From Congeria kusceri (Eukaryota; Mollusca; Bivalvia; Myida; Dreissenidae), in contig CM051034.1 of NCBI GenBank assembly GCA_027627225.1, positions 41,149,048 through 41,213,047 of the forward strand: 64,000 nt of DNA. The letters run 5' to 3'. The notes below the pieces were generated by a model, which ran no database searches, was not told the DNA's origin, and saw nothing but the letters and a program-made list of their open reading frames with translations. Positions 15,486 through 60,900 of the stretch are shown piece by piece. The stretch's first letter is position 1; the number at the start of each line of letters is the position of its first letter. The position numbers and the translations under genes are program-made.

Positions 15486-15650
15486 TTAAAGGAACTTATT
15501 CACATATTTTCGTGTGTTTTGTTTAAATATTATAAAACTTAAGTTCAAAAACTAAAGCATCTGGGCTCACAAATCTAAAGAGTTTGCTAAGAAAAGCATA
15601 ACAAATAAATTCACATTAACCACGACATCCGGATCAAAAGTCTTTATGCT
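15486..15650 (-). mobile_element. Fragment of the TTAA/tRNA element family
   Basis: Begins TTTAAAGGAACTTATTCACA, like the 3' terminal repeat of the 497-bp family. It ends near CCGGATCAAAAGTC, a piece of the tRNA-like module also present at 26,851-26,864. Internally diverged and truncated. Confidence 0.5.
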
Positions 15651-15856
15651 ATTCCACTAGGCAAAGTCTTTTTGCTATACCACTAGGCAATAGGGGATTG
15701 CGTTTGAAAACGTGAATGCTTAACACTGTGGTTTAAAAATACCGACGAAAAGCGACCGCTTTATAGCTTATGTCATTTCAATTAATGTTTTTTTTTTTCA
15801 TAAATGTCCAGTTATTTCGGTAAATTTTTGGGTCAGGAGTGTTTGGGTCATTTTTG

Positions 15857-15907
15857 CTGTCTGTCTGTCTGTCCGTCCGTCCGTCCGTCCGTCTGTCTGT
15901 CTGTCTC
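15857..15907. repeat. (CTGT)n/(CCGT)n microsatellite
   Basis: CTGT and CCGT tetranucleotides within a T-rich repeat-like context. Derived open frames are not genes. Confidence 0.9.
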
Positions 15908-25491: not shown

Positions 25492-26522
25492 ACAAGAGCT
25501 GTCAGAGGACAGCGCGCTCGACTATTTGAAGTATTTCAGTTGGTACATATTTTGGATGGTGGAATCGGCATAAATTTGTTAAAATACAAAACTTTTAAGT
25601 GAAGCCTTGTATAGTTTATACATTTTTGGAACAAAAACTTTAACCACAAAATCTATGTAAAAAGTATGCATAACTCTGTCAAAATACAAAACAGAGTTAT
25701 GGGTAATGTAACGCCTGATACTAGAGTTGATGACAAAGGTTATTTCCAAGTTTCAAGTGAATAACTTATGTAGTTTTGAAGTTACCAAACTTTTGAATTT
25801 AAACTTTAACCAGAAAATCTATGTGAAAAAGGGGCATAACTCTGTCAAAATACAAAACATAGTTATGGGTAATGTTGCCCCTGATACTAGAGTTGATGAC
25901 AAAGGTTAGTTCCAAGTTTCAGGTGAATAACTTATGTAGTTTAGAAGTTACCAAACTTTTGAATGTAAACTTTAAACAGAAAATCTAAGTGAAAAGGGGC
26001 ATAACTATGTCAGAATACAAAGTAGAGTTATAGGTAATGTTGCTCCTGATACTAGAGTTGATGACAAAGGGTTTTTCCAAGTTTCAAGTGAAAAGCTTAT
26101 GTAGTATTGAAGTTACAAAACTTTTGAATTTAAACTTTAACCAGAAAATCTATGTGAAAAGGGGGTATAACTCTGTCAAAATACAAAAAGAGTTATGGGG
26201 AATGTTGCCCCTGATACTGGAGCTGATGACAAAGGTTAGTTCCAAGTTTCAAGTGAATAACGTATGTAGTTTTGAAGTTACAAAACTTTTGAATATAAAC
26301 TTTAACTAAAAAATCTACTTGAAAAAGGGGCATAATTCTGTCAAAATACAAAACAGAGTTACGGGGAATGTTGCCCCTGATATGGAGTTGATGAAGTGAA
26401 TAACTTATGTAGTTTTGAAGTAACAAGACTTTTGAATAAAAACGTTAAAAATTCAGACGCGGACGCCGACGCCGGGGGTAGTAGGATATGGCTCATCTAT
26501 TCTTCGAATAGTCGAGCTAATA
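25492..26522. mobile_element. Pearl-like element with five ~166-bp internal repeats
   Basis: The ends carry the inverted word GCTCGACTATTYGAAG (25517-25532 and about 26502-26517). The interior is about five direct units of roughly 166 bp, each with GGGTAATGTTGCCCCTGATA, CAAGTTTCAAGTGAATAAC and CATAACTCTGTCAAAATACA. The 3' end has a GACGCCGACGCC tract. This resembles bivalve 'pearl'/Helitron-associated non-autonomous elements, which have tandem ~160-bp cores. No protein-coding capacity. Confidence 0.65.
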
Positions 26523-26875
26523 ATTAGAAACACAATTATTAGGGACCTGGATTATCAAAATTATTCAAATATTTTAGAACTGGTCTGGTATCACATCCCT
26601 GCTTCCCCTCAGCAGTATCCTGTACCTTTTCTGATCTTAGGTCTGTCCCTAATCACTATATCTCATACCTGGTTTAAAGGGACGTGTTCACATATTTTCG
26701 TAATTTTAAAGTATGCCATAAAATGTTTTCATTTGACAGATTTAAGCATCGCAACAAAAGAGCTCAGGTATAATAGTTCACAAAAAGAATTTTAAAAAAA
26801 AAGAAAAGAAAAAAGAACGTTGCTCCCAGCTAGGTTCGAACCTCAGACCTCCGGATCAAAAGTCTAACGCTTTAA

Positions 26876-27373
26876 AGGGACCTGTTCACAGATTGACGAA
26901 TTGAAAATATTTCAACTTTTTGTCACCGATTCCAAAAATAAAATAACAGTGTATACAAGGGAACAAAATAACACTACGGACCTAGAAATATACTGTAAAA
27001 AAAACCGTTTCGTTTATGAGTAATCATCAGTTGAAATAGACAAAATTATAAAGCGTTTGTAACGCTAAACGATGAAATAATTTGGAGTGTTTCTGTTGTT
27101 TTCGTTGAAACTGTTGACATCATGTGGGACACATACATAAAGTAAAAAATTCAAAGTGAAATATAGAAATCGAAATGGCCGAGTGGATAAAGCTCGCCTT
27201 TTAATCCGGAGGTCCCGGGTTCGAACACCGGTGAGACCAATTTTTTCTTATCTTTTTTTTAAATAGTTTTCTTGTTATTATACTTGAGCTTTTTAGTTCC
27301 GATACTGAAATTTGTCAAGTTAAGACATTTAATGGTATACTTTAAAAAATGCGAAAATCTGCGAACAATTCCC
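26876..27373 (+). mobile_element. Inner 498-bp TTAA/tRNA element (intact)
   Basis: Begins AGGGACCTGTTCACAGATTG and ends CTGCGAACAATTCCC. It is bounded by TTAA at 26872-26875 and 27374-27377, a 4-bp target-site duplication. The interior has a 290-bp head, a tRNA-like module (27169-27240) followed by a T-run, and a 130-bp tail. It has no long open frame and must be mobilised in trans. Confidence 0.85.
27169..27246 (+). tRNA. tRNA-like Pol III module inside the TTAA element
   Basis: Box A TGGCCGAGTGG (27176-27186) and box B GGTTCGAACACC (27218-27229) have tRNA spacing. GGTCCCGGGTTCGAACACCG gives a plausible T-arm, and TTTTTT at 27241-27246 is a Pol III terminator. The class II-like GGCCGAGTGG start is reminiscent of tRNA-Ser/Leu. 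The anticodon region is AT-rich and cannot be assigned safely. It is a mobile-element promoter, not a host tRNA gene. Confidence 0.65.
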
Positions 27374-27699
27374 TTAACCACTCAGCCATTTTGATTTCTA
27401 TACTTAAATCACCATTTTTTACTTTATACAAGTGATTCAGGTGTTGTCGACGATTTTTACGAAAACAACATAAACATTCCAAATTATTCCATCGTTCAGC
27501 GTTACAAACGCTTTATAATTTCAACTGAAGTATACTCATGAACGAAATGGAATTTACAATATATTTCTATGTCCATAGTGTTATTTTCCTCATTTTTATA
27601 CACTATTCTTATATTTTTGGAATCAGTGATAAACAGTTGGAAAATTGTCAATTCGTCAATCTGTGTACAGGTCCCTTTAAACATAATACTCAATATGTT

Positions 27700-28610
27700 T
27701 TGTCTGAGATTGCATAAAATACAAATAGTAGATAGCAGAGTCGGTTGCGTTTGTACCCTAATAACGGAATCCCTCGTGTGCGTCAACACTGACGTACGAG
27801 TGCGACTATAATGACGGTATCATCATCTCCATCCTCACGATCTCTGATCGCCGACTCACGTATTGATGACTCGGTGACAGAAGACGGAGAGGGCGTCGTA
27901 ATTCGAGAAATCGTCCGAATCCCGCCCTGTTGGGTCCCACTGATAGAAAATTAATTATCTCGTAAAATCCCGCCGACCTCTGATAAACCGACACGACCTC
28001 CTGTGGGGAGAATGTGCCTACACTCAGACATTTCGGTCATTTCTGATGGAACCTGTGATTTATTGTGATAAGGTTTCTTTTGAAAATTTAATATTCGCTG
28101 GTTTTTTACGAGTTGTAATGACTGCTTCGACATCATGGCATTTGCATGGTGCAAAACGACTCGTTAGATACTCGCGTGAAAAGTTGCTGGCAAAACGTAA
28201 ATACATTGTTTATAGACCTACACATTTAAACACATAGCACGATAACGAAAAGCTTGGTCTAATTAGAGACTTGGCGCGACTTAAGACCAGTCCCCTGTCG
28301 TCCAATATTGATACAGCGACCCACTGTCCATATGGTGACCACGGTGACGTACGAATCCATGATAAAGTAACCTATGTAGACAATGTCCCACATCATTGTC
28401 AACATGCTAGAAATCAAAGTTAGTGACTGTTCGATCAAGCATTAACATTGAAAACTTTACCATTTGTTACATGGCGGTTAAAGACCTTTATAGGTTTTGC
28501 CACGAACTTGTTAAACTCCTGCCCAGCTATTGTTAACGGAACAATTTACATTTATCGAACGTCACAGACACATTACAAGCTTCACCGTGTGCTCTTTTCT
28601 GTAAAATAGG
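27700..28610. other. Intergenic, no gene seen; GC-richer patch
   Basis: 27,800-28,030 is richer in GC and holds AAATTAATTATCTCG; it may be regulatory. No exon is recognised. Confidence 0.3.
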
Positions 28611-28999: not shown

Positions 29000-30130
29000 T
29001 TAAGCACCTGATTTCCAAGTGCAATGCATGGTTACAACATATTAATTTGCGTATGATAGACATTTGTGCAAACGTCTATATTATGAATAGAGCAGCAAAA
29101 CAAGACGGGTCAAAATGTCTACACTAACGAAATTGGAATGGGACACTGTCTATGCGTTATTTCGTCCCTTTCCCATGAGGTCAGACGAGATTTCAGCAAC
29201 AGGAATGAGAAACGCTTCAGCAACAGGAATGAGAAACGCTTAGTCAACCGTTTGTCTGCAATAGACAATTACGCAGACGTACCATAGACAATTAAGATAA
29301 AGGTAAACAACAATGCATCATTAAAGCCAGCTAATCGCGACGCATTATCTCAACATGAAATAAATCTAACGGAAAATTGAGGATCATAATTGGCAATAGA
29401 AAACTTGACAAACCCTATTAAATTACAAAATTCCATTATCTAAATGCCATTTAAAAGGAATTAAGACGCTGCCACATTAAACACACGTGCGCACGTGCTA
29501 GAATCTTAGCCTGTCGAATGTCTCATTCTAAATCACGCGTGAAATCGAGATAATACGCGAGATAAGACGATGTTTTAGACTTTCTGTTTAGCGCGAAATC
29601 GATGTAATGATAATAAAATCAGGCGATTTATTCGGCTTAAAAAGGTGTGCTTTTATGCGTGATGACTACAGACCACCGCCGGTTGCGCGTCTCTCCATGT
29701 TAAACTGTTACTCGAACTTCAAACTAACTGCTATCTATATTTCCTGCTGGTGGTCTGGTAAAACTTCTTATTTTGTTCTTAGAGCGTTCAGGGTGTGTGT
29801 TTTTCAATCCGTTGACGCGCACGTCAGTGGACAGCTTACACTGTTCTTTGCCGCCAAACGCTTTATAACTCTAAAAGTTTCAACTGATAATTACTCATTA
29901 ACGACACGTTATTAACAATATATATCTATGTCATATTATTTATTTTCTGTATATACAATGCTAACGCCCTCGTGGTTTAATTCCTATTTCTTAAATAATA
30001 TATGCAAATGATACTACAATACTTGCGTAATTTTAGTTCAAATCATACACATTCTCTGTGAATTGCTGTTCTTACCTTCTTAACTACTTCAAATTCTAAT
30101 TCCGGCAATTAATTTGACAGAAAATAAATG
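29000..30130. other. Intergenic; fragment of TTAA/tRNA element at 29,820-29,935 (-)
   Basis: AACGCTTTATAA and TTTCAACTGATAATTACTCA match the head of the 497-bp family in reverse orientation. A 24-bp direct duplication (CTTCAGCAACAGGAATGAGA) lies at about 29,193-29,240. No host gene is recognised. Confidence 0.45.
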
Positions 30131-36831: not shown

Positions 36832-39800
36832 GTACGGTTACTTCATATCTTAAAGTTGCTTAATTTTAATATTTATTGAAACGTAGTAACAGTCCGCATG
36901 TTTGTTTGAAATTATTGTAACGGTACCTATCTGCAAGTCGTTTATTAGGACATAGTTACGATGTTTCTAAGGAAATGTCGTTGGTACTAATGTATTATAA
37001 TAAATGTCATGGTATCTTTGTCTAATGTAAATTCATAGTTGCACTTTATTCATACATTTATGTTGGTTTTATATTATTTAGTAATAGTTTCTCAAATCAA
37101 AATTGAGTCGAATTAATCTCTGTAATGAACAATTAACTGCTGTTTTAGTAGACGAGATGAATGCAGATTGTTCCACAAAGTTATACCTAGATCTGTATTC
37201 CAAAAGCATCTTAAGTTTATCTTAAAACATGTTCAATTAAAAAGTTCCTATTTTTGTAATATAATTATTTTTAAAATATATTTAAATTTGTGAATCCCTC
37301 TAAAGTCAGGTGAGCAACAGTTTATAATAAGTTGATAATTAATACACAATTTGCACAATGCTTTTTAAATATTAAATACATATTGACGCGCGTCGTGAGA
37401 AAACCGGTCTTAATGCATGTGCGTAAAAGTGTCGTCCCGGATCAGCCTGTGCAGTCCGCACAGGCTGATCCAGGACGGCACTTTCCGCCTACAGTGGATT
37501 TATGTTTAGAAGAGACTTCCTTGAAACAGAAAATACCATAAAAGCGGAAAGTGCCGTCCCGGATTATCCTGTGCGGACTGCACAGGCTAATCTGGGACGA
37601 CACTTTACGCACATGCATTAAGTCCGGTTTGCCAAAGACGCGCCTCAATTTTGAAGGTTGAGGATAAGATTTTACTTAAGACGTTTCTGGAATATAGCCC
37701 CCGGATCAATTATTTCACGAAAATTTGGCCAACATATTTTTAAAATGGTATTTACTAAAGAAGCTTTGAAACAACACGAACACTGTAGTGTAACAGATTC
37801 CTTTGTATATTCAAATAAAACACTGTAGTGTAACAGATTCCTTTGTAGATTCAAATAAAACACTGTAGTGTAACAGATTCCTTTGTAGATTCAAATAAAA
37901 CACTGTAGTGTAACAGATTCCTTTGTAGATTCAAATAAAACACTGTAGTGTAACAGATTCCTTTGTAGATTAAAATAAAACACTGTAGTGTAACAGATTC
38001 CTTTGTAGATTCAAATAAAACACTGTAGTGTAACAGATTCCTTTGTAGATTCAAATAAAACACTGTAGTGTAACAGATTCCTTTGTGGATTCAAATAAAA
38101 CACTGTAGTGTAACAGATTCCTTTGTAGATTCAACTAAAAATAATACGCTGAAATTCCATTCCAACGTTATTTCTGATGTCTGGTAATTAATTACTATTT
38201 TAAAAGTATGTATTGCACATGGACTTCAACACAATTATAAATAAATGTGAAGTTAATGAATATACATTTATTGATTTAAAAACATACTATTATTGTGTTT
38301 GGTGAGTACGTAAAATACTATAGATTGACACTAAAGGGACCTGTTCACAGATTGGCAAATTGACAAATGTCAAAAGTTTTGTCATGGATCACAAAAATAA
38401 AAAAATACACTACATATAAACAAGCAAAGTAACACTTCTGACAAAGAATTATATAGCAAATATAGTGTCGTTTATAGATCATCACAACTGAAATGGATAA
38501 AATTATAAAGCGTTTGTAACGCTGTTTATCGATATTTTGGACAACACGTGTATCACATAAATAGCGATAAAAATACACTACTTGTTAGGCCAGAGTTGTT
38601 TTATTTCTTGGTTCTCGGACATTTTTGTAAGTGTCCGGCTGGAGGAAGGAAAAAGAATAAAAATAAAAAACAACAACACAGAATTGAGTAAATTAATGAC
38701 TAGAATTTCACAGATGGAAATGGACATTGATATTAAAATCTTAATGCATAATTACTTATAAAAATCATATAACACAACACTTACTTAATCACTACATGAT
38801 AACCATGACATTAATATTTTTTTGCATTCCGTGTAACAGGTTGAAACCCTTTCACAAGGTCATTTGTATGATACCGGTTACATTCTACAAATTTTTGAAT
38901 TTTTTTTTGGCTTTTTGGAAAAAATCGGGACGGCGGATCCGAGAACCAAGAAATAAAAAACTATCGCCTTAGTAAGTCAGAATGGCCGTATGGTGAACAG
39001 GTCAGACTTGCGATCCCGACGATAGTAGGTTGGATGTCCGATGAAGGAAAAAAATTAATTTACTTGTTTTCCTTATTTAATATTGTTATTTGTTAGATGC
39101 TTACGTTTTTGCAGTTGAGATATTTAATGGCATTTTTTTTAAAGTTAAATACGTGAACAAGTTCCTTTAAGAAATACATGTTATAGTAAATGTGCATGTC
39201 ATATATTTTAATATATATGAAGATTTAAAACAAATCTGTACGTTCATTTATTAACTTTAGGTGGAACAATATAATACTTAATTATACTTTTTTGTTATAT
39301 TATAACATATTACATTACGATATTAAAGACGCGGAGGAAATACTAGATTATTTATTATTTTTATTATGCTTATTTCATTTGCAATATAGTAATACCAAAT
39401 ATTCAACTTGTATTTTATAATAGAGTATTATACTTTTTTCACAATACCATAACCATTTTCTGCCTGTTTATGAAATAAAAATCAAAAGCATTATAATTAC
39501 AAAAAAAAAACTTTATTGTCATTGTATCCAAAATAAAAGACGTCATAATTCCAAATATTAGATTTTATTTAAATATTTTCAAAAAAAAGAGTAGATCTAT
39601 ATAAAATTTTCTACCATCCCTGGAAGATAGAAATAAGTGGTATGTGTCTATGGTAAATTTCCAGTCAAAATGAATGTTCATAAATATTTTTATATAAAGC
39701 TACTTCATGTATTAAATTATTGTGTACGACAAACGAAAAGGAATTACTAAAACTTACTAAATAATTTTCAGTAAATGTTTATAATGTCCATCACATAACA

Positions 39801-40979: not shown

Positions 40980-43900
40980 TGTAACCTAATTGAAAACGCC
41001 CCTCTGGCTGCACCTAATTGCCTCCACCCCGTCTGTGTTTGTTACGTTATCAATTAACGCCGTATCAAGTTTCCGCGCGGTGTCCAATGGTCCATCCGGT
41101 ACGGCGAGATCATTAGCTCACAATGGGTATTCCAGGAACACAAATACGTAGGCTCATTAGTAATTAACAATTACCTGCGTGCACTATGGCTATGTTTGAC
41201 CCTTGGAATCCTTTCTTGAGCGACCCTTTACCCCGTTCAACAGTTATAGATGATGAAATATTAAAGGGGCAGTTTCACAGTTTATGGCCTTGAGAAATAA
41301 TTTTCTTAAACTGACTTTCCCTGTTCTATAATTTATTTGTTGTTCATATTTCAATGTTTGAAAAGCACATTGCATGTGCGCTGGTAAACTTTTGATGACT
41401 GAATATATGTGGGTGTTTTTTTTTTAATTGCTACCTGGTAGACATACCCTAGTAATTGTTTACATAAAATGCATGATAAATATTAAAATAATCGTGTTTT
41501 GCAACGTAAACAGCATAACAGATAAAAAATTTCAATAGATTCTACAAATTCATGTTTGAAAATTCAATTTTTAAAGAAACGTTTTTTCCCAACCCCAAAC
41601 TGTGAGACTGTCCCTTTAACCAGCAGTGTATGACAACCCCAAACTGTGAGACTGTCCCTTTAACCAGCAGTGTATGACACCTACAAACTGTGAGACTGTC
41701 CCTTTAACCAGCAGTGTATGACAACCCCAAACTGTGAGACTGTTCCTTTAACCAGCAGTGTGTGACAACTACAAACTGGAGACAAATTAACAAACAATTG
41801 CACAAGGTTTAACCACTGTCATCAAAAAAGAGGAATCTGTTTTATCCCCCCCCCGGAAACTTACTACAGTGAATAGAAAATATTTGAAGCCACAATAATT
41901 GTATTCATTATTCAATGCCAGGCGCGGTAACAGGATTTGTAGGGGTCGAATAATTCAATACTTACCAAACTATACGTGTATAAATTATATACTTTACATA
42001 TCCATGACTATGAAATTACGCGACATTATTGTTTAGCTGTTTGAATTGATACTAGACGTGTACTAGGCTTCTGTGCAACATAACAAAATAACAGAGCTGA
42101 TAAACTTATACAATGTATTTTTCTTCATTAAAAGGCAATGTCTAAGTAATTCTTTAAGTTAGTTTGACAGCTAAAAAAATCGATTCTGAGACAATTTGAC
42201 GAGGGGGGGGGGGCGGACACCGCTTCCACACCCCTCCAAAACCGCACCTCTTTAATGCCGCACCTCTCTAAATCCGCACCTCTCAAAATCCGCACCTCTC
42301 TAAATCCGCCTATTACTACATATAATGTGATAACGCAGTGAGATGCAAAGAAACATGTAACCAAGGCAGTGAGAATCTATAACGTCCTCCAAATATAACG
42401 ATATAAATACTTACGCTGTTCATATAACATTTAAAATATTCAACAATATCACCTAGCAAAGTTAATTGTTATTTTGAAATTAATATGCATATGTATATAA
42501 TTATAGTTTTATGTGGATGGGTGCAAACTACAAACTACGTACTTATAAAACGTATGTAACTTGTTTTCCTTAAACAACATTTTATCTATAAGAATAAGAC
42601 AAGTATGAGAAATAAAACGATATTAACTTGATGCAATCATTGTTAACTACCTACTGTTTAAATTTGATAAAATTAACAAAACAACAACAATTTCTATGAA
42701 AGGATACCTAATAACAATAGCAACAAGCATTCAAAATACGCGTCTCAATCGCAATTTCTTGCGTCTAAGTACGCAAAAGTGCTTTGTGAAATAAATACGA
42801 TGTCACCTTCCACCACCGCCCGCGGAAGAAAAATAATAAGTGGTTAGTAAGAGTGTAAAATCTCTGGGTGAAATCTGAACGGGGGTCCGTCGTGGGAGCT
42901 ATTTGCGAACAATAAACATTATCGTCCCCCCCCAGTTACGGTAAGAGTCCTCTAGGGGAAAATTGCTGATACAATCAAGGGTATTTAATTGGATACTGTG
43001 CCTAATTCCTTGCAATTATGACAGGCTATGAACGGATATATTACACATTATGTCGAATCAACAGCGAACCAAGTTGCACCCAGTGGACCGTTTTACACGG
43101 TAGGAATAAAGGAATTAAGGTTGATAGGCGATCGGGAATCGTCCGGAAACATAACGGCATTGGAATTATGGCACTAACGAAGTTTGATTGCACGGATGTA
43201 TTATATTTGCTCTACTTTTCTCAATCTGAAATTTATAAACCGGCATTTGAATTTACCGGTTTATAAATTTAAGATAGGGAAAAGTAAAGTTCATTATTTC
43301 CCAAAGTACGGTGTGATCGTAATATGATATCCTTCGCAGAAGCCATGTGAGCTTCTACTGCACACGAGAAAACTACATGTTGCTTCTTGACACATGAACT
43401 ATATGTTTCCATTTCCCACCCTTACTTAAACACAAATGCTTAAAGATGTAGCTCATACACCATTTTACTTTGTACATGAAGTAAGACGGAAATTGTTTTT
43501 TTATTTAAAATGCTCTTATTTAACATATTTCTTACTGTTTATTTCAGGTGAAGATATGGTTTCAGAACCGGCGGACCAAGTGGAAGAAACACGAGAACAT
43601 CACCGCGAGCGACCTGCCGGAAGTGCGTCTGCAGGCAGAGAGGAACCCGGATGTCGCAAAGGCCATTCAAAACGCGGCGAAACTAAAGAAAGCCAAGGAA
43701 AGACTTGAACAAGCGGCCTCTAGCCGGGACGCTTCTAGAAAAGATTCTAGTCGCCATAGCAGCCATGGCAGCAAGGACGACAGCTGCAGTAGCCGCGAAG
43801 CGGACACGTGTGACCAGGTGAATCAGCCCCTCGACTTCACTATGGGGAAACTGAACGATCCGAAACACGATATATCGGAAAGTGAGGCGAACGAATCTGA

Positions 43901-44522: not shown

Positions 44523-45016
44523 AAGGACCAACCGGTATTCGCAGATTGGCGATTTGACGAATTTCAATTTTTTCAGCACAGATTCCAAAAATAAATGATA
44601 TTTTATAAAAAAGAATCGAAATAGCACTACTGACATAGATATATATTGTACTTGACGTTTCGTTAATGGGTAATAATCAGTTGAAACGGATAAAATTCTA
44701 TATTGTAAAGCGTTTGTAACGCGAAACGATTGAGAAATTTGGAGTATTTCTGTTGTGTTCGTTGAAATTGTTGAAAGCACGTGTATCACTTACATAAAGT
44801 AAAATTACACGAACATGTACATGTGTATGCATATAAATCAGAATGGACGAGTGGTTGCGCGTCGGACTTTTGAGTTAGAGGTCGTATGTTCAAACCCTGC
44901 TCGATTGTTTTTTCTTTCTTTATTTTCTTGTTATAATTATTTAGCTATTCCGTTCAGATCCTTTAATTTTTCAAGTTAAGACGTTTAATGGCATATTTCA
45001 AAAATACCAAAAGCTT
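44523..45016 (+). mobile_element. TTAA/tRNA element, worn full-length copy (~494 bp)
   Basis: Head words CGCAGATTGGCGATTTGACG and AAAGCGTTTGTAACGCGAAA match the family. The tRNA-like module has box A TGGACGAGTGG (44844-44854) and box B TGTTCAAACCC (44887-44897), followed by a T-run. The tail ends near AAAGCTTTTAA. Termini are mutated (TTGAAAGGACC). Confidence 0.75.
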
Positions 45017-45019
45017 TTA

Positions 45020-46089
45020 ACAATTACGAATGAGTGTATAATAATAATCATATATAATTAGAACTATGATGATTGAGGATATAAAGTAAACCATATACAA
45101 ATATATAACTTATTTATTTCTTCAAAAACATTGGTATCGTGCAATAAAACTTTGCAAATCGGAAACATACTTCCAAAGGTAAATCCGCTTTTTTTTAATG
45201 TTTGTGCACATTGTGTACACAACTAAGGCGAATTGTTGGGGGCGCATGTATTAAAGTTAGATTTATGTATTATTTTGACTTTATATACACACTAATACTT
45301 TTTAAAAGTCTATTCCGGGTAATTATTATAATACATTTATTTCGTAAATGTATTATAACTTTGAAGGGACAGGTATCTTTAACTATGTGTGCGTTTATTT
45401 GTTCTCGTTTCGTTCCTTTTTTTGTTATTAGAAACATAATAATTTAAAAGCGCCCTCATGTAATGGACAGTTTAACAGTTGGAGACTACTAAAAACGATT
45501 GAAGATTGCCGGAACAAGCTATAGAATGCACAAAAGCTTGGCATTTTTTCAGTGTTTATTTTAATGACATGAATCTTATGTTATTATTACTTGTAACGAG
45601 AAACAAATAAAGTGTTAACATGATTATATTGTTCGCATTTGGTTTATTTTTTCATTTATTATGGAAGCAACATCAACAATAGGTGTAATACTACTAGTAC
45701 ACGACAATAAGATGCAAGCTGTATGTGCGAGTGATACTTATACATATAAACATAATGTGTTTAAAGGAGGACAAATGTATATGGAATAATTCTTGCAGAT
45801 GTCTCCCTTTATATATGATCAATGCAAATACTGATTGCGCACAAATAACATTTATGCAATCAGTATTTTTACAACGAATCAATGTTTGGCAATTTCTATA
45901 TATTGTGTACGATACAATGTATAAATACGAGAACATATATATAGTTACCTTTAATTGAAGTGGAGTTTACCTAAATAATATATGTTTTAATTAGTCCAAA
46001 GTCCGTTAAAAGTCTACATTCGCAGTAATAGTAAGCGAGTACAATAATAACAGGGAGTGAGATGCATGTCGCCGTAACACACCGACACG
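45020..46089. other. Intergenic between the NK7-like and receptor genes
   Basis: No gene. TTTATT words at about 45,643 and 45,654 would be AATAAA on the minus strand, possible poly(A) signals for the minus-strand receptor. A 13-bp perfect stem (AAATACTGATTGC, 45826-45838 with 45856-45868) has a 17-nt loop. Confidence 0.4.
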
Positions 46090-47298
46090 TCAATTAGGGA
46101 CCTGTGTCCCAACCGTCGACGCGATAACAATAGCCATAGTAAAGACCAACATGAACAGCATGAAGAAGTAAAATCCCACAAAGTCAATCGCCTCCGTGAT
46201 GTTTTGCCACGTGATCTCCTCCTCTTCCGCCGACTGGCGCCTGTCGGGGCTCTTACCCACGCAGCAGGCGCACCGGACCCTCCGAACGAGGCGCGTGAAG
46301 CGGATGAGGAAGTGCGAGGGCGCGTGGCCTTCTGAGCGGTGGTGTATGCGCAGCTGGAAGATGGTCACCGCGACCAGCAGTGTGCTCACCATCGTCATGA
46401 TGAAGATGTACATGCTGAACAAGGAGGTCTTGTCGGAATTCTCAGGTATCTCGTCGCCGATGATTGTCAGAAAAACGGCGAACGACAAAAATGCCGTCAC
46501 CGCGTATCCAGTCTTCTCGCCGGAGTCCACCGGAAGTACAAAAAGGAACGCGTTGAGAGCTCCTAGCAAGATAACCGGAACAAGGATGTTGACCAGGTAA
46601 TGTAACGGCTTCCGTTCCATCTCTATTGAGAACAGAATACCAGAGTTATTACCAGAAATAAATTCCGTTACTGCAGTTCTAAGAACGTCCCACTCGGAAT
46701 TCGTTTCGAACTGCGTCGTGTCAAACCCAACGGTACCGCGTGAGACGGTCACCTTATCCAGCGTGTTGCTCCAGATCAGAAACTTCAGCTCGCACGACGT
46801 CTTGTCGAACGGGAAGAACCGGACGTTCACCTCACACCCGCTATCAAACACCTGATACGGTTTCCAGAGCACCGAACCGTTCCGGTCCACGCGCACATAC
46901 AGGAAGGAGTCCCCGAGGCCCGTCATGGTATCAAAGCCGTTCTGCAGCGCCAAGTCCGGCACCCAAACGTTACCCTGCGGTACGTAGACGTGATCGATAT
47001 CCGTGTTGGTCCAAGAATCGGCAATCACTTCGTCCTTCCACTTGACGTCGATGTAGGCGGTGGTCGTCAGTTTCTGCTCGCGGTTATCAAAGGAGTTGAT
47101 CCCTATCAGGAACAGGTCCATAGTTACCACGACTGCGTTGCTCTGGTTCATGATCGGCCGGATGTAGGTGGTGTAGTTGACCGGCAGGATCGCTGTCAGG
47201 TGGCCCCGCATGTCCTCTGCCGTGACTGCACACGTTATTATAGAACACTGCAGACACAGGACCACGGTTATACACAAAAATGCATTAAAAACATTCAT
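46090..47298 (-). CDS. Cys-loop ligand-gated cation channel subunit, intronless (402 aa)
   Basis: Predicted plasma-membrane pentameric channel subunit of the nicotinic acetylcholine receptor superfamily. Seen: signal peptide (1-25), extracellular domain with WVPDLALQNG (loop A region), Cys-loop C155-C169 with the canonical 13-residue spacing and FPFD, M1 (232-255), GEK before M2 (260-262), M2 (264-281), M3 (293-313), a short Arg/Cys-rich loop, and M4 (371-394). GEK with no PAR insertion argues for cation selectivity. There is no vicinal Cys pair in loop C, so it is a non-alpha-type or divergent subunit whose ligand may not be acetylcholine. The length is short for the family because the M3-M4 loop is small. 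It has no intron, whereas its head-to-head neighbour has one. The start ATG at 47,296-47,298 gives the signal peptide. Confidence 0.92.
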   Translation of the reverse strand: MNVFNAFLCITVVLCLQCSIITCAVTAEDMRGHLTAILPVNYTTYIRPIMNQSNAVVVTMDLFLIGINSFDNREQKLTTTAYIDVKWKDEVIADSWTNTDIDHVYVPQGNVWVPDLALQNGFDTMTGLGDSFLYVRVDRNGSVLWKPYQVFDSGCEVNVRFFPFDKTSCELKFLIWSNTLDKVTVSRGTVGFDTTQFETNSEWDVLRTAVTEFISGNNSGILFSIEMERKPLHYLVNILVPVILLGALNAFLFVLPVDSGEKTGYAVTAFLSFAVFLTIIGDEIPENSDKTSLFSMYIFIMTMVSTLLVAVTIFQLRIHHRSEGHAPSHFLIRFTRLVRRVRCACCVGKSPDRRQSAEEEEITWQNITEAIDFVGFYFFMLFMLVFTMAIVIASTVGTQVPN

Positions 47299-47776
47299 TT
47301 TGCTCCACAGTTAATAACAAGAACTATACCAATGTAACATTTAGTACACTCTGACAATCGACTAAGATTTAAATGCTACGTAATTGATTTGCCCTTTCTT
47401 ACACGTTTCAAATCAAACTCCAGTGTGCACAACGGTGTCAATTACTAGGCATTATTGTGTCTATTGTTTAATGCCATAATACTCACGCTCAAGACAAAAC
47501 TCGAGACTGTAGGTGTTAAAATCGTTCAACAGTAGACCACAATATGAAATTCGATTGTTGTATGGTTTACTTTCTAATGTCGTATCTATTATGTCGGTTA
47601 AATGGCGCGTTTACTGCAAATGTCTAACAAACTGACACACCAAGTTCTCGCAATTGTAACAATTTATAACGTTTTGTAATTATTCCAAATATTCGTGCGG
47701 TTTAATATTTGTGAAAATTTTCGTTATCCGTTATTATAAACGTACTAAATGTAAATTGGTTCACGGACTACGTTAA
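47299..47776. promoter_or_regulatory. Shared bidirectional promoter region of two receptor genes
   Basis: 478 bp separate the two start codons. A TTATAAACG box lies about 45 bp before the plus-strand ATG. ATAAAT-type words on the minus strand lie near 47,660. Both genes' 5' UTRs must fit here unless they have upstream exons. Co-regulation is inferred from geometry. Confidence 0.5.
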
Positions 47777-48776
47777 ATGAACGAAGAAATGCAGGTCCGG
47801 TTGTCCATCCATATTGCCCTGGTGCTTCTTACCCTGTTGTATCTCACCATGCGGGCACAGGCGGGAGTCAGTGCAAACGATATGAAAGAGCATCTGACTA
47901 ATACGTTCAGGAACTGTGACAACCGCGTGCGCCCCCTGCTGGCCGATCAATTCGCCGCTGTTGACGTCGAAGTTGACTTTCATCTTCTTGGCATCGACTT
48001 CGTCAGCGCAGAGTCAAAGCTCGAGACTACAGCGTTCCTTGAAATCTCGTGGACGGACGAGATTCTTGCCGACCAGTGGAACGTGACCGATGTACCGGAA
48101 ATCATGATTCCTCAGTCCGATATCTGGTTACCGGACATGGCACTACAAAATGGATTCAAGACTTTGACGGGACTTGGTAATTCGTTTTACAACGTGAGAG
48201 TGAAACAGAACGGCACAGTCACCTGGAGGCCGTACCACGTGTTTGAGAGCGCGTGCAGCATTGACGTCACATATTTCCCTTTCGACCAGACAACTTGCGA
48301 CCTTAAATTTATCGTTTGGAGCAATCCGAAATCGTTACTGAGAGCCCATATTAAAACGGGAATGATAATGGACGGGTTTACCGAAAACAGCGAATGGGAA
48401 ATCATTGGCACTGCCTCGGTCGACGTAGAAACGGATACGTCGACAGGGGTAACGTTCTCAGTCCACATGAAACGGAAGCCACTGTTCTACCTGATGAACA
48501 TCCTGATTCCCGTCATCATGCTGGCGGCTCTCAACCCCTTCGTGTTCGCGCTACCGGCCTCCTCGGGCGAGAAGACGGGCTTCGCTGTGACGGCGTTTCT
48601 AGCGTTCGCGGTCTTCCTGACGGTGATCAGCTCCGAGCTGCCGTCGACGTCAGACACGATCTCGACGTTCTCGGCGTACCTGTTCCTGATCACGTTCCTG
48701 AGCGCCCTAATTTCCATGATCACTATCACAGAACTGCGCCTCTTTGCGCGACAGGCAGACGTCCCAGTCCCGCCAG
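47777..48776 (+). CDS. Plus-strand receptor exon 1 (signal peptide to M3)
   Basis: 333 codons plus one base. Reading past the donor gives an unrelated tail and a stop at 48,875-48,877, so the splice to 49,435 is needed to supply M4. Confidence 0.9.
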
Positions 48777-49046
48777 GTACACAGGCGTTTCGTTTCACTT
48801 TTTTTATATATTTTTTACCCATTTTATGTGAACATGTACTAATTAAAAACCTTTGCGCAAATGAATGGTTCAACTGAAAACTACCGTGCCGTATGAATTA
48901 TATATTACATTCCAAATCTGACACTATCATAACAGCGTTAATTTTTAAATGCCCATACTTAATCGTTCTTTGTTTAATAATACTGCTTTATCCATGTTAG
49001 GCATATACATATTAACCAGCGGATACACTGCGATAGCCGAGTTAAG

Positions 49047-57920: not shown

Positions 57921-60900
57921 CTGCAACGGAAATCGTTTTTATGTTATAACAAATTATTTCCTAAATCGAACATTTTATATTCATAATGATAGCCAATACG
58001 GACACCATATTCGTTATTTATACTGTGTAGTTTTTCGACAAAACTGTATATTCTAAAAATAAGACAAGAATCAAGTCACTAAATGCCAACAACACGAACA
58101 AAATCTTAAGTATTCTTAAATCAAACGCCGTGAAAATCCAGGAGTGACGGCCTTACCTCAGAGCTGTACGCTGATTGGAGGATATGCTGGTGGTAGGCGG
58201 GGTCAGTGTACTCCGTACCGGCGTTCCATCGGGAGGCGGAGTTGTAGGTTTCCAGCGTCCTTTTAAGAGAGGCGTTCTGTAAAACAATATGGCGTAAAAT
58301 GAGTCAAATAAGTTTATACCTTCATATGCAACAAGTTGCTGGCCTATAATAAACAAAAAGTTAGGCTAAAACTGGACAAAAGTAAAGTAAATTTCCCCTG
58401 TCAGAGCGGCGAGTTCAAGCTTCCTTGTATTACACAATGACTGTTTTCATCTGTATATCCATGTGCGGTGATCAGGCCATCGTTCAATCCATAATTAAAT
58501 TGGTGACGAATGTTCTTAGTTGAAGGGTTTCTTTCTTCACTTTCCGTAGTTAATTGTGAAATCTTCGTATCAACTGAGTGGTCTAATAATTTCCTTCTTA
58601 AATTGCAAAATACTCTTAATCACTCGATATTACAAAATGCCAATCAAATATAAGTAGAAGTTAACTCAACCCATAACATTTTCCTTTGTGATACACCGTT
58701 TAATTATTTTCCCCTTGAGTGGCAGACCCGAGTTTATTGTTGTTGTTGTTTATTTTTTTCAAACATAGGTTATGTACACGTTTTTGAAGTACCAATTTAA
58801 CACGCTGCTGTTGTTAAGCATTGAATCATGCGGTTGACAGTGCAAATATTTCATCTTACATCAATATCCGCTTATAACAGACCTGGGAGCATATTCCAGA
58901 AACAACTTAAGCAGAAAAACATATTTTACTTCAATTATTATAATGTTATCCATGTATTTTTAAAGTTATAGCGGTAGAAAATTGTGTGAAACCCTTTCCA
59001 GTAAAGTAAACACGAATAAAGACCTGGAGTAAAACACGATGATTTTAAAGTATAAGATTTAACTTGATATGTTTCTGGAATTCGGCCCCTAATAAGCATA
59101 ACCTACTCCAGGCAGCCGTACCTCTTTCTTGAGATGTTCAATTTCGTTCTCCAGACGGCCCAGTTTGTTCTGCGCCCTCTCGCGGTCGCGCCGTTCCGAC
59201 TCGAAGTCTTCCGTACATATCTGGATCTGAGCCTTCAGAGCGTTGATTGTTTCACTTTCACTCTCGTTTCGCTTTCGGTTACCGGAAGCGGAAAGTTTCC
59301 GGAGTTCGGCTTTCAGGGCTGCGATCTGACCTTGGGCATTTTCCATCTCACGCTTAAACTGAAAATACGAGAACATTCCGCGTGAGAATATTCATGGTGC
59401 AGCGGAAACAGTCCATAATTTATCCCCTGCTCGAATATGGAGCACCGAATTGCAGTGTTCATATAGGGAAACATAAGTAAATTTAAATGCTGAAGATTAT
59501 AATGAGGACTGATACGCAGCTAAAAGAACAGCTGTGCAATAGTGGAAGAAAGCAACCAGTTCTGCAATACAACACATGATGAAAACGCACAGAGTCGATG
59601 TTAATACCACAATGCGCGGACAATAATTGCGGCGATACAACAATATGAATTGCATAACGCTGAAGTCGACCTATTAGAAATTGCATTGTCTCATTTCAAC
59701 GCACTTAAGAATTTCTCATGCAGAAAAGGAACCAATGCGTTATCACCATAATAGGATTATCTCTAGTTAGATTCTATATCATTCTAATGGGACACTGTTT
59801 GTACTCAGGGTATTTGTCAGCGAAGAAATACTCACTAATTCCTTATCTCCGGTCAGTCGCGTCCGCTGGATTTTTATTTCATCGATCTCGCCATTCAGAC
59901 GCTTGTTTTCGTCCAACATCCGGTTGAACTCGGCCTCCACAGACGCTTGGCCTTGACTGCTCTTGACCTTCTGGAGGCTTGCATGCATCTGCTCGAGGTC
60001 CTTGCGGAGCTTGGTCACGTATTCCTCGCGCTGCGTGTGGTGCTCCTGCCAGCGCCGGTTCATTTCAATCACCTAGCAACAGAACACACACATTTACATC
60101 TTCGTGCTCTAAAACGTTGCCCATTTAAGTTTGGACAGCTTTCAACTTAACAAAAAAAGTGAAAAAAAAGATCAATTTTGTTATGTTGCATATATTATAA
60201 CATGGACCTTTAATTGGCAAATCGACACTTTTCAAAAAAGAAAATTGTATTATGTGTAAAGAAGCGACATAACACTACTGATACTGGAATATATTCTAAA
60301 TAATGTATCGTTTTTTAACAAACAATAATTGAAATAGAGTAAGACATGGATAAAATTATAAAGTGTTTGTCAAAAATACGAATACCTAAAGCTAAATAAG
60401 TACATATAAATATTTACTGTTATTTATTATTAGAACTAACAGCTTTACTCTTTCAAAGTAGTTTATTTAAGTTCGATTGTGGTGAAAGTCAATGGCTTTT
60501 TGGATAACTATGGAGTCCGTTCCCTGGGTAGAACCAGCACTTCGTGACTTTTGAGAAAGATCATTCGCACGCTACCCAATCGGTGATCGCGCTCTTTCTA
60601 TGCTATTATATGAACTTGCATGCAAGTAACACTTGTGCATACACTGCACAATATTGATCACATGCGTCGTAAATTACCTCTTTAACTTCCTTTTTCAACT
60701 TGTTGTTTTCAGCTAGAACTGCTGCGTTTGTTGAGTCTTCGTTTGCCTGGTGAAAAAAAGGATGTGATATTTATTCATATATCACAGACAAAGCTTGCCA
60801 AAATATTTTTGCACATTTTATAACCTCCTAAATTTAATGCGCGTGATAGTGCGACATAACGAGTTAAGTAGCACAAATGGCGTGAAAGGAACCAAATAAG

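What the first reader, a model, noticed from the sequence alone, without database searches (positions are those of the whole stretch)
26678..27676. A mobile element nested exactly inside the tRNA-like module of an inverted copy of itself
Seen: a 498-bp element (26876-27373) flanked by TTAA on both sides. Removing it with one TTAA joins 26678-26875 and 27378-27676 into a 497-bp minus-strand element that is itself flanked by TTAA and has a continuous tRNA-like domain (box A on one side, box B on the other). The length match and restored module make the order of events clear. The target TTAA lay between box A and box B, so the insertion disrupted the older copy's Pol III promoter.
Basis: seen in the sequence. 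Interest (0 to 1): 0.75.

Follow-up and report, generated by a model that had tools for sequence, protein, structure and literature searches.

The report
Mobile DNA element inside its relative
In what looks like a bivalve genome, a short DNA transposon jumped into an older, oppositely oriented copy of its own family and split that copy's tRNA-like segment; the event is real and its order is clear, but such nesting is ordinary for an abundant element.

Summary
A 498-bp plus-strand element (26876-27373) lies between two TTAA copies inside a 497-bp minus-strand element of the same family, itself flanked by TTAA. Removing the insert with one TTAA gives a collinear copy, 78-82% identical to the insert, and restores the only box A-box B pair found. 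The termini (TTAA; AGGGAC...GTCCCT) carry the published Kolobok/T2-MITE signature, so the best reading is cut-and-paste insertion of a nonautonomous, Kolobok-type element into an older copy. The family has about seven copies or fragments here; the host is probably a bivalve near Dreissena. Nesting as such is ordinary: the older copy has five TTAA sites, one in the tRNA-like module, and 0.09-0.15 self-nests per 64 kb are expected. That the insertion broke a working Pol III promoter is only a sequence-level inference: no tRNA was recognised, the module is no better conserved than the rest, and of five aligned copies only the rejoined older one has both boxes. The more interesting point is that a TIR-type DNA element carries a tRNA-like module at all. 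The window's genome could not be searched; that tool did not complete.

The parts
26678..26875 (-). Older copy, 3' part (box B side), including the left TTAA of the duplication at 26872-26875
26876..27373 (+). Younger inserted copy, 498 bp; right end one T short of CCCT
27374..27377 (.). Right TTAA of the target site duplication
27378..27676 (-). Older copy, 5' part (box A side)
26674..26677 (.). TTAA flanking the older copy, left
27677..27680 (.). TTAA flanking the older copy, right
27378..27388 (-). Older copy, box A (TGGCTGAGTGG), directly beside the insertion
   Evidence: position read
26833..26841 (-). Older copy, box B (GTTCGAACC)
   Evidence: position read
27169..27239 (+). tRNA-like module of the younger copy; box A at 27176-27186, box B-like at 27218-27228 with one mismatch; first T6 run after it at 27241
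   Evidence: positions read
27050..27065 (+). Most conserved 16-mer of the family (AAAGCGTTTGTAACGC), holding an inverted repeat; same block in the older copy at 27499-27514 (-)
   Evidence: positions read
44524..45028 (+). Family copy C, 71-72% identical to the nested pair
38335..39166 (+). Family copy D, split by an unrelated 360-bp inverted-repeat element at 38599-38958
15490..15868 (-). Family copy F, 5' part missing
29816..29962 (-). Family fragment E
60204..60370 (+). Family fragment G

Best explanation
A roughly 500-bp nonautonomous DNA transposon (a MITE) of the Kolobok/T2 type, carrying an internal tRNA-like module, was moved by a transposase supplied elsewhere. It inserted, in the opposite orientation, into a TTAA just 3' of box A in an older copy of the same subfamily, and duplicated the TTAA. 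Shown: anatomy, duplication, collinearity, terminal signature, module position. Inferred: a Kolobok transposase as the mover, and loss of whatever Pol III activity the older copy still had. The target was probably just one available TTAA, not a homing site.
For: Target duplication and collinear halves. Excision control: 2 of 6152 TTAA-pair excisions make a box pair, this one among them. [quoted passage not shown] TTAA, or one base off it, also flanks copy D (left CTAA, right TTAA) and the preserved end of F (TTAA). The two nested copies are the closest pair of the five aligned: 81.6% against 72.3% at most. Self-nesting is expected at 0.09-0.15 per 64 kb if seven copies land on random TTAA, and 1 of 5 TTAA in the older copy lies in the module.
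Against: No transposase gene was found, though only 8 of the 23 listed ORFs of 110 aa or more were scanned. The inner right end is one base short. Copy-specific changes do not show the insert as clearly younger: 31 in the inner copy against 37 in the outer, of 471 columns. Copy C keeps no intact TTAA at either end.
Confidence: 0.88

Rival explanations
1. The element homes to its own tRNA-like module or to tRNA genes, using the TTAA in the D-loop (GTGGTTAAAGC in the older copy) as a preferred target.
For: The insertion lies at that TTAA in the older copy, and the inner copy has ATAA there.
Against: 1 of 5 TTAA in the older copy is hit by chance. One event only. The 12-base flanks of copy D and of the preserved end of F look not tRNA-like by eye, which is a weak test.
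Confidence: 0.05
2. The mover is a piggyBac transposase, which also uses TTAA.
For: TTAA duplication.
Against: Termini are 5'-AG...CT-3' (purine-purine...pyrimidine-pyrimidine), which PMC9587614 (passages) gives as the distinction of Kolobok from piggyBac.
Confidence: 0.06
3. The family is a SINE (retrotransposed by a LINE), and TTAA is only its preferred endonuclease site.
For: tRNA-like module with box A and box B in the rejoined older copy.
Against: The module starts near position 294 of 498, not at the 5' end; the ends are inverted repeats; a T6 run comes directly after the module in inner, outer and C, so a Pol III transcript would be expected to end there.
Confidence: 0.03
4. Not a nested insertion but an inversion or assembly artefact joining two copies.
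For: Window sequence only; no reads available.
Against: An exact 4-bp duplication with both elements full length, and no N in the window.
Confidence: 0.03

Closest known systems
T2-MITEs of Xenopus (Kolobok superfamily), PMC6004289 (passages read)
   Same: TTAA target, terminal AGGRR motif, nonautonomous and presumed to be moved by Kolobok transposases, long-lived
   Different: The word tRNA does not occur in that paper's main text (term count 0)
MER6 MITE with a captured V-SINE piece, PMC6887750 (passages read)
   Same: TIR element carrying SINE-derived sequence
   Different: Tc1/Mariner with TA duplication; the paper says the captured SINE lost its head module, whereas here the tRNA-like part is what is present
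Helenus TRIMs with tRNA-derived LTR sequence, PMC10886601 (passages read)
   Same: Captured box A-box B sequence that is not a functional tRNA, in a non-SINE mobile element; molluscan families exist
   Different: LTR retrotransposons, for which a Pol III transcript can be the template; a cut-and-paste element needs none

Membership tests
Kolobok / T2-MITE | TTAA target site duplication | tested here: met
   Both nested copies; D has one intact and one mutated TTAA; C has none intact
Kolobok / T2-MITE | 5'-RR...YY-3' termini, AGGRR motif | tested here: met
   AGGGA at both ends of the outer copy and the left end of the inner; inner right end lacks one base; definition
Kolobok / T2-MITE | Shares ends with an autonomous element encoding Kolobok transposase | not testable with these tools
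   The genome search was unanswered in 13 of 13 tries
[quoted passage not shown]
   Module at about 294-364 of 498
SINE | Target duplications of varying length (recalled) | tested here: not met
   TTAA in both nested copies; 4 bases with one mutated in D; not readable in C, and one end only in F
SINE | 3' tail shared with a LINE | not tested
   No repeat library at hand
Functional tRNA gene | Recognised by ARAGORN or an Rfam tRNA model | tested here: not met
   None by ARAGORN for inner copy, rejoined outer copy or window; no tRNA-family match by Rfam in 26600-27760 (E up to 5), the whole window (E up to 1), 27150-27260 or 44820-44930 (E up to 10). The rejoined outer copy was not given to Rfam
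piggyBac MITE | Termini other than 5'-RR...YY-3' (contrast drawn in PMC9587614; CCY-type ends recalled) | tested here: not met
   Ends begin AGGGAC

The most novel reading that the evidence does not exclude
A Kolobok-type DNA transposon family has captured a tRNA-derived Pol III promoter and uses its binding factors (TFIIIC), not the RNA, for example to keep chromatin open for excision. The module would then be a transposition aid in an element with no RNA intermediate.
Probability: 0.08. Interest if true: 0.65.

Novelty: new member of a known kind. Interest (0 to 1): 0.25.

Why it matters
The nest fixes the order of two insertions within one family and marks the family's true ends, which helps annotation. 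The broader question it raises is why tRNA-like promoters end up in cut-and-paste elements. Captured Pol III modules have a clear use in SINEs and a proposed one in the Helenus elements, but not here.

Tried and rejected
Searching the window's own genome for more copies and empty sites: the genome search, the same request, unanswered 13 of 13 times. An earlier count said 9 times but lists 10; the count here is the right one. Exact-pattern scans for the family's ends or conserved block: 0 matches in viral contigs and genome contigs. Those collections hold viruses and prokaryotes, so this says little about an animal element.

tRNA gene and Rfam tests of the module were negative. The idea that the module is under special selection was not borne out on present data: mean pairwise identity 0.62 in the module against 0.65 elsewhere; 61% of same-length stretches are as conserved or more (4 copies: inner, outer, C, D; F and fragments E and G left out; gap positions counted as differing). 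Of 5 copies scanned for the boxes, 2 have box A by consensus (inner, outer), 2 have box B (outer, C), 1 has both (rejoined outer), and 2 have neither (D, F). The idea that a SINE insertion brought in the module: looking for exact direct repeats of 7-14 bases between the 70 bases before the module and the sequence after it, one of 8 bases was found in inner, none in outer or C; diverged repeats were not looked for. Homing to the module: not needed, see rivals. The fold of the module is not unusual (z -0.3, -1.7, -1.2 for inner, outer, C).

Literature: ten searches; among the rows listed (up to 20 per search, most lists cut) I saw no Kolobok MITE with a tRNA-like module. Repbase and Dfam were not available, so this is not a claim of absence. 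Six papers were opened by term search, passages only.

Full report
Observation. The insert (26876-27373, +) and the rejoined outer copy (26678-26875 + 27378-27676, -) are 498 and 497 bp and align from end to end: 77.8% over 510 positions by BLASTN, E 3e-115, and 81.6% over 485 letter-letter columns by MAFFT. The one correction is that the insert's right end lacks one T compared with the outer copy and copy D.

Independent control. The window as it stands has no box A-box B pair by the consensus used (TRGYNNARNGG, 28-50 bases, GWTCRANNC; recalled motifs). After excision it has exactly one on the strand searched, in the older copy; 200 simulated windows (same dinucleotide frequencies, both strands) average 0.02, maximum 1. 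Among 6152 excisions between TTAA pairs 200-1000 bp apart, 2 create such a pair across the joint: this one, and 15486/16021, whose first TTAA flanks copy F and which was not examined further.

The family. Profile search finds 9 hits, which make seven copies or fragments: the nested pair, C 44524-45028, D 38335-39166 (split by another 360-bp element, 38599-38958), F 15490-15868, and fragments E 29816-29962 and G 60204-60370. Together they make 2665 bp, 4.2% of the window. C, D and F all have tRNA-like sequence in the aligned position, though decayed: by consensus C has only box B, and D and F have neither box. The module thus looks like a property of the family, not of these two copies.

What it is. 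Ends AGGGAC...GTCCCT and a TTAA duplication match the T2-MITE description (TTAA and terminal AGGRR; PMC6004289, passages) and the Kolobok termini that separate it from piggyBac (PMC9587614, passages). PMC10294476 (passages) reports Kolobok among the molluscs it analysed almost exclusively in bivalves.

How it works. Most likely a transposase supplied in trans cut out a copy and pasted it into a TTAA 3' of the older copy's box A. The insertion and duplication are shown; the enzyme is inferred. The older copy has 5 TTAA sites, one in the module, and with 7 copies landing on random TTAA 0.09-0.15 self-nests per 64 kb are expected. The nest is no sign of targeting. The module does not score as a tRNA where tested, and a single-sequence fold of inner, outer and C is not unusually stable. 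In those three copies a T4 run lies inside the module and a T6 run follows directly after it, so any Pol III transcript would be short. The module is not better conserved than the rest. Whether the older copy's promoter was alive when it was hit cannot be told. The inner copy has one mismatch in box B, while the rejoined older copy has both boxes by consensus.

Dating. Of 471 three-way columns, inner has 31 private changes, outer 37 and C 81. Inner and outer look like one subfamily; the order of insertion rests on the nesting, not on divergence.

A consequence. Because the copies are inverted, an RNA across 26678-27676 is predicted to fold into a long hairpin between 26876-27190 and 27374-27676 (+ strand): -377.7 kcal/mol against a mean of -187.2 for 30 simulated sequences, z -18; for the - strand -384.5 against -199.1, z -15.6. 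Whether it is transcribed is unknown.

Verdict. Real and correctly reconstructed, but ordinary in kind. The family with its tRNA-like module deserves more interest than the nest. Its novelty could not be tested, since repeat libraries and the host genome were out of reach.

Noticed in passing
38599-38958: A 360-bp element with inverted repeats (TTTTATTTCTTGGTTCTCGG) splits family copy D about 25 bp upstream of its tRNA-like module; no clear target duplication seen by eye.
   Followed up: partly
15490-15868 (-): Copy F appears to carry a duplicated 5' half of the tRNA-like module (TTGCCTAGTGG twice), and its 5' part gives way to a GGACGGACAGACAG repeat.
   Followed up: no
27050-27065, 27499-27514, 38507-38522: The 16-mer AAAGCGTTTGTAACGC, with an inverted repeat, is the most conserved 16-mer of the family (identical in inner, outer, C and D), unlike the tRNA-like module. 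Role unknown.
   Followed up: partly
41600-41770: Four tandem copies, 44 bp apart, of a unit like CTGTCCCTTTAACCAGCAGTGTATGACAAC with small differences; the unit resembles a repeated right end of another TTAA-type element beginning near 41261 (TTAAAGGGGC).
   Followed up: no
46090-47307 (-) and 47777-48874 (+): Two divergent neighbouring ORFs of neurotransmitter-gated ion channel type (Pfam PF02931, PF02932), the first closest to a Dreissena protein.
   Followed up: partly
26000-26470: Diverged direct repeats of roughly 170 bp just left of the nest, seen by eye.
   Followed up: no
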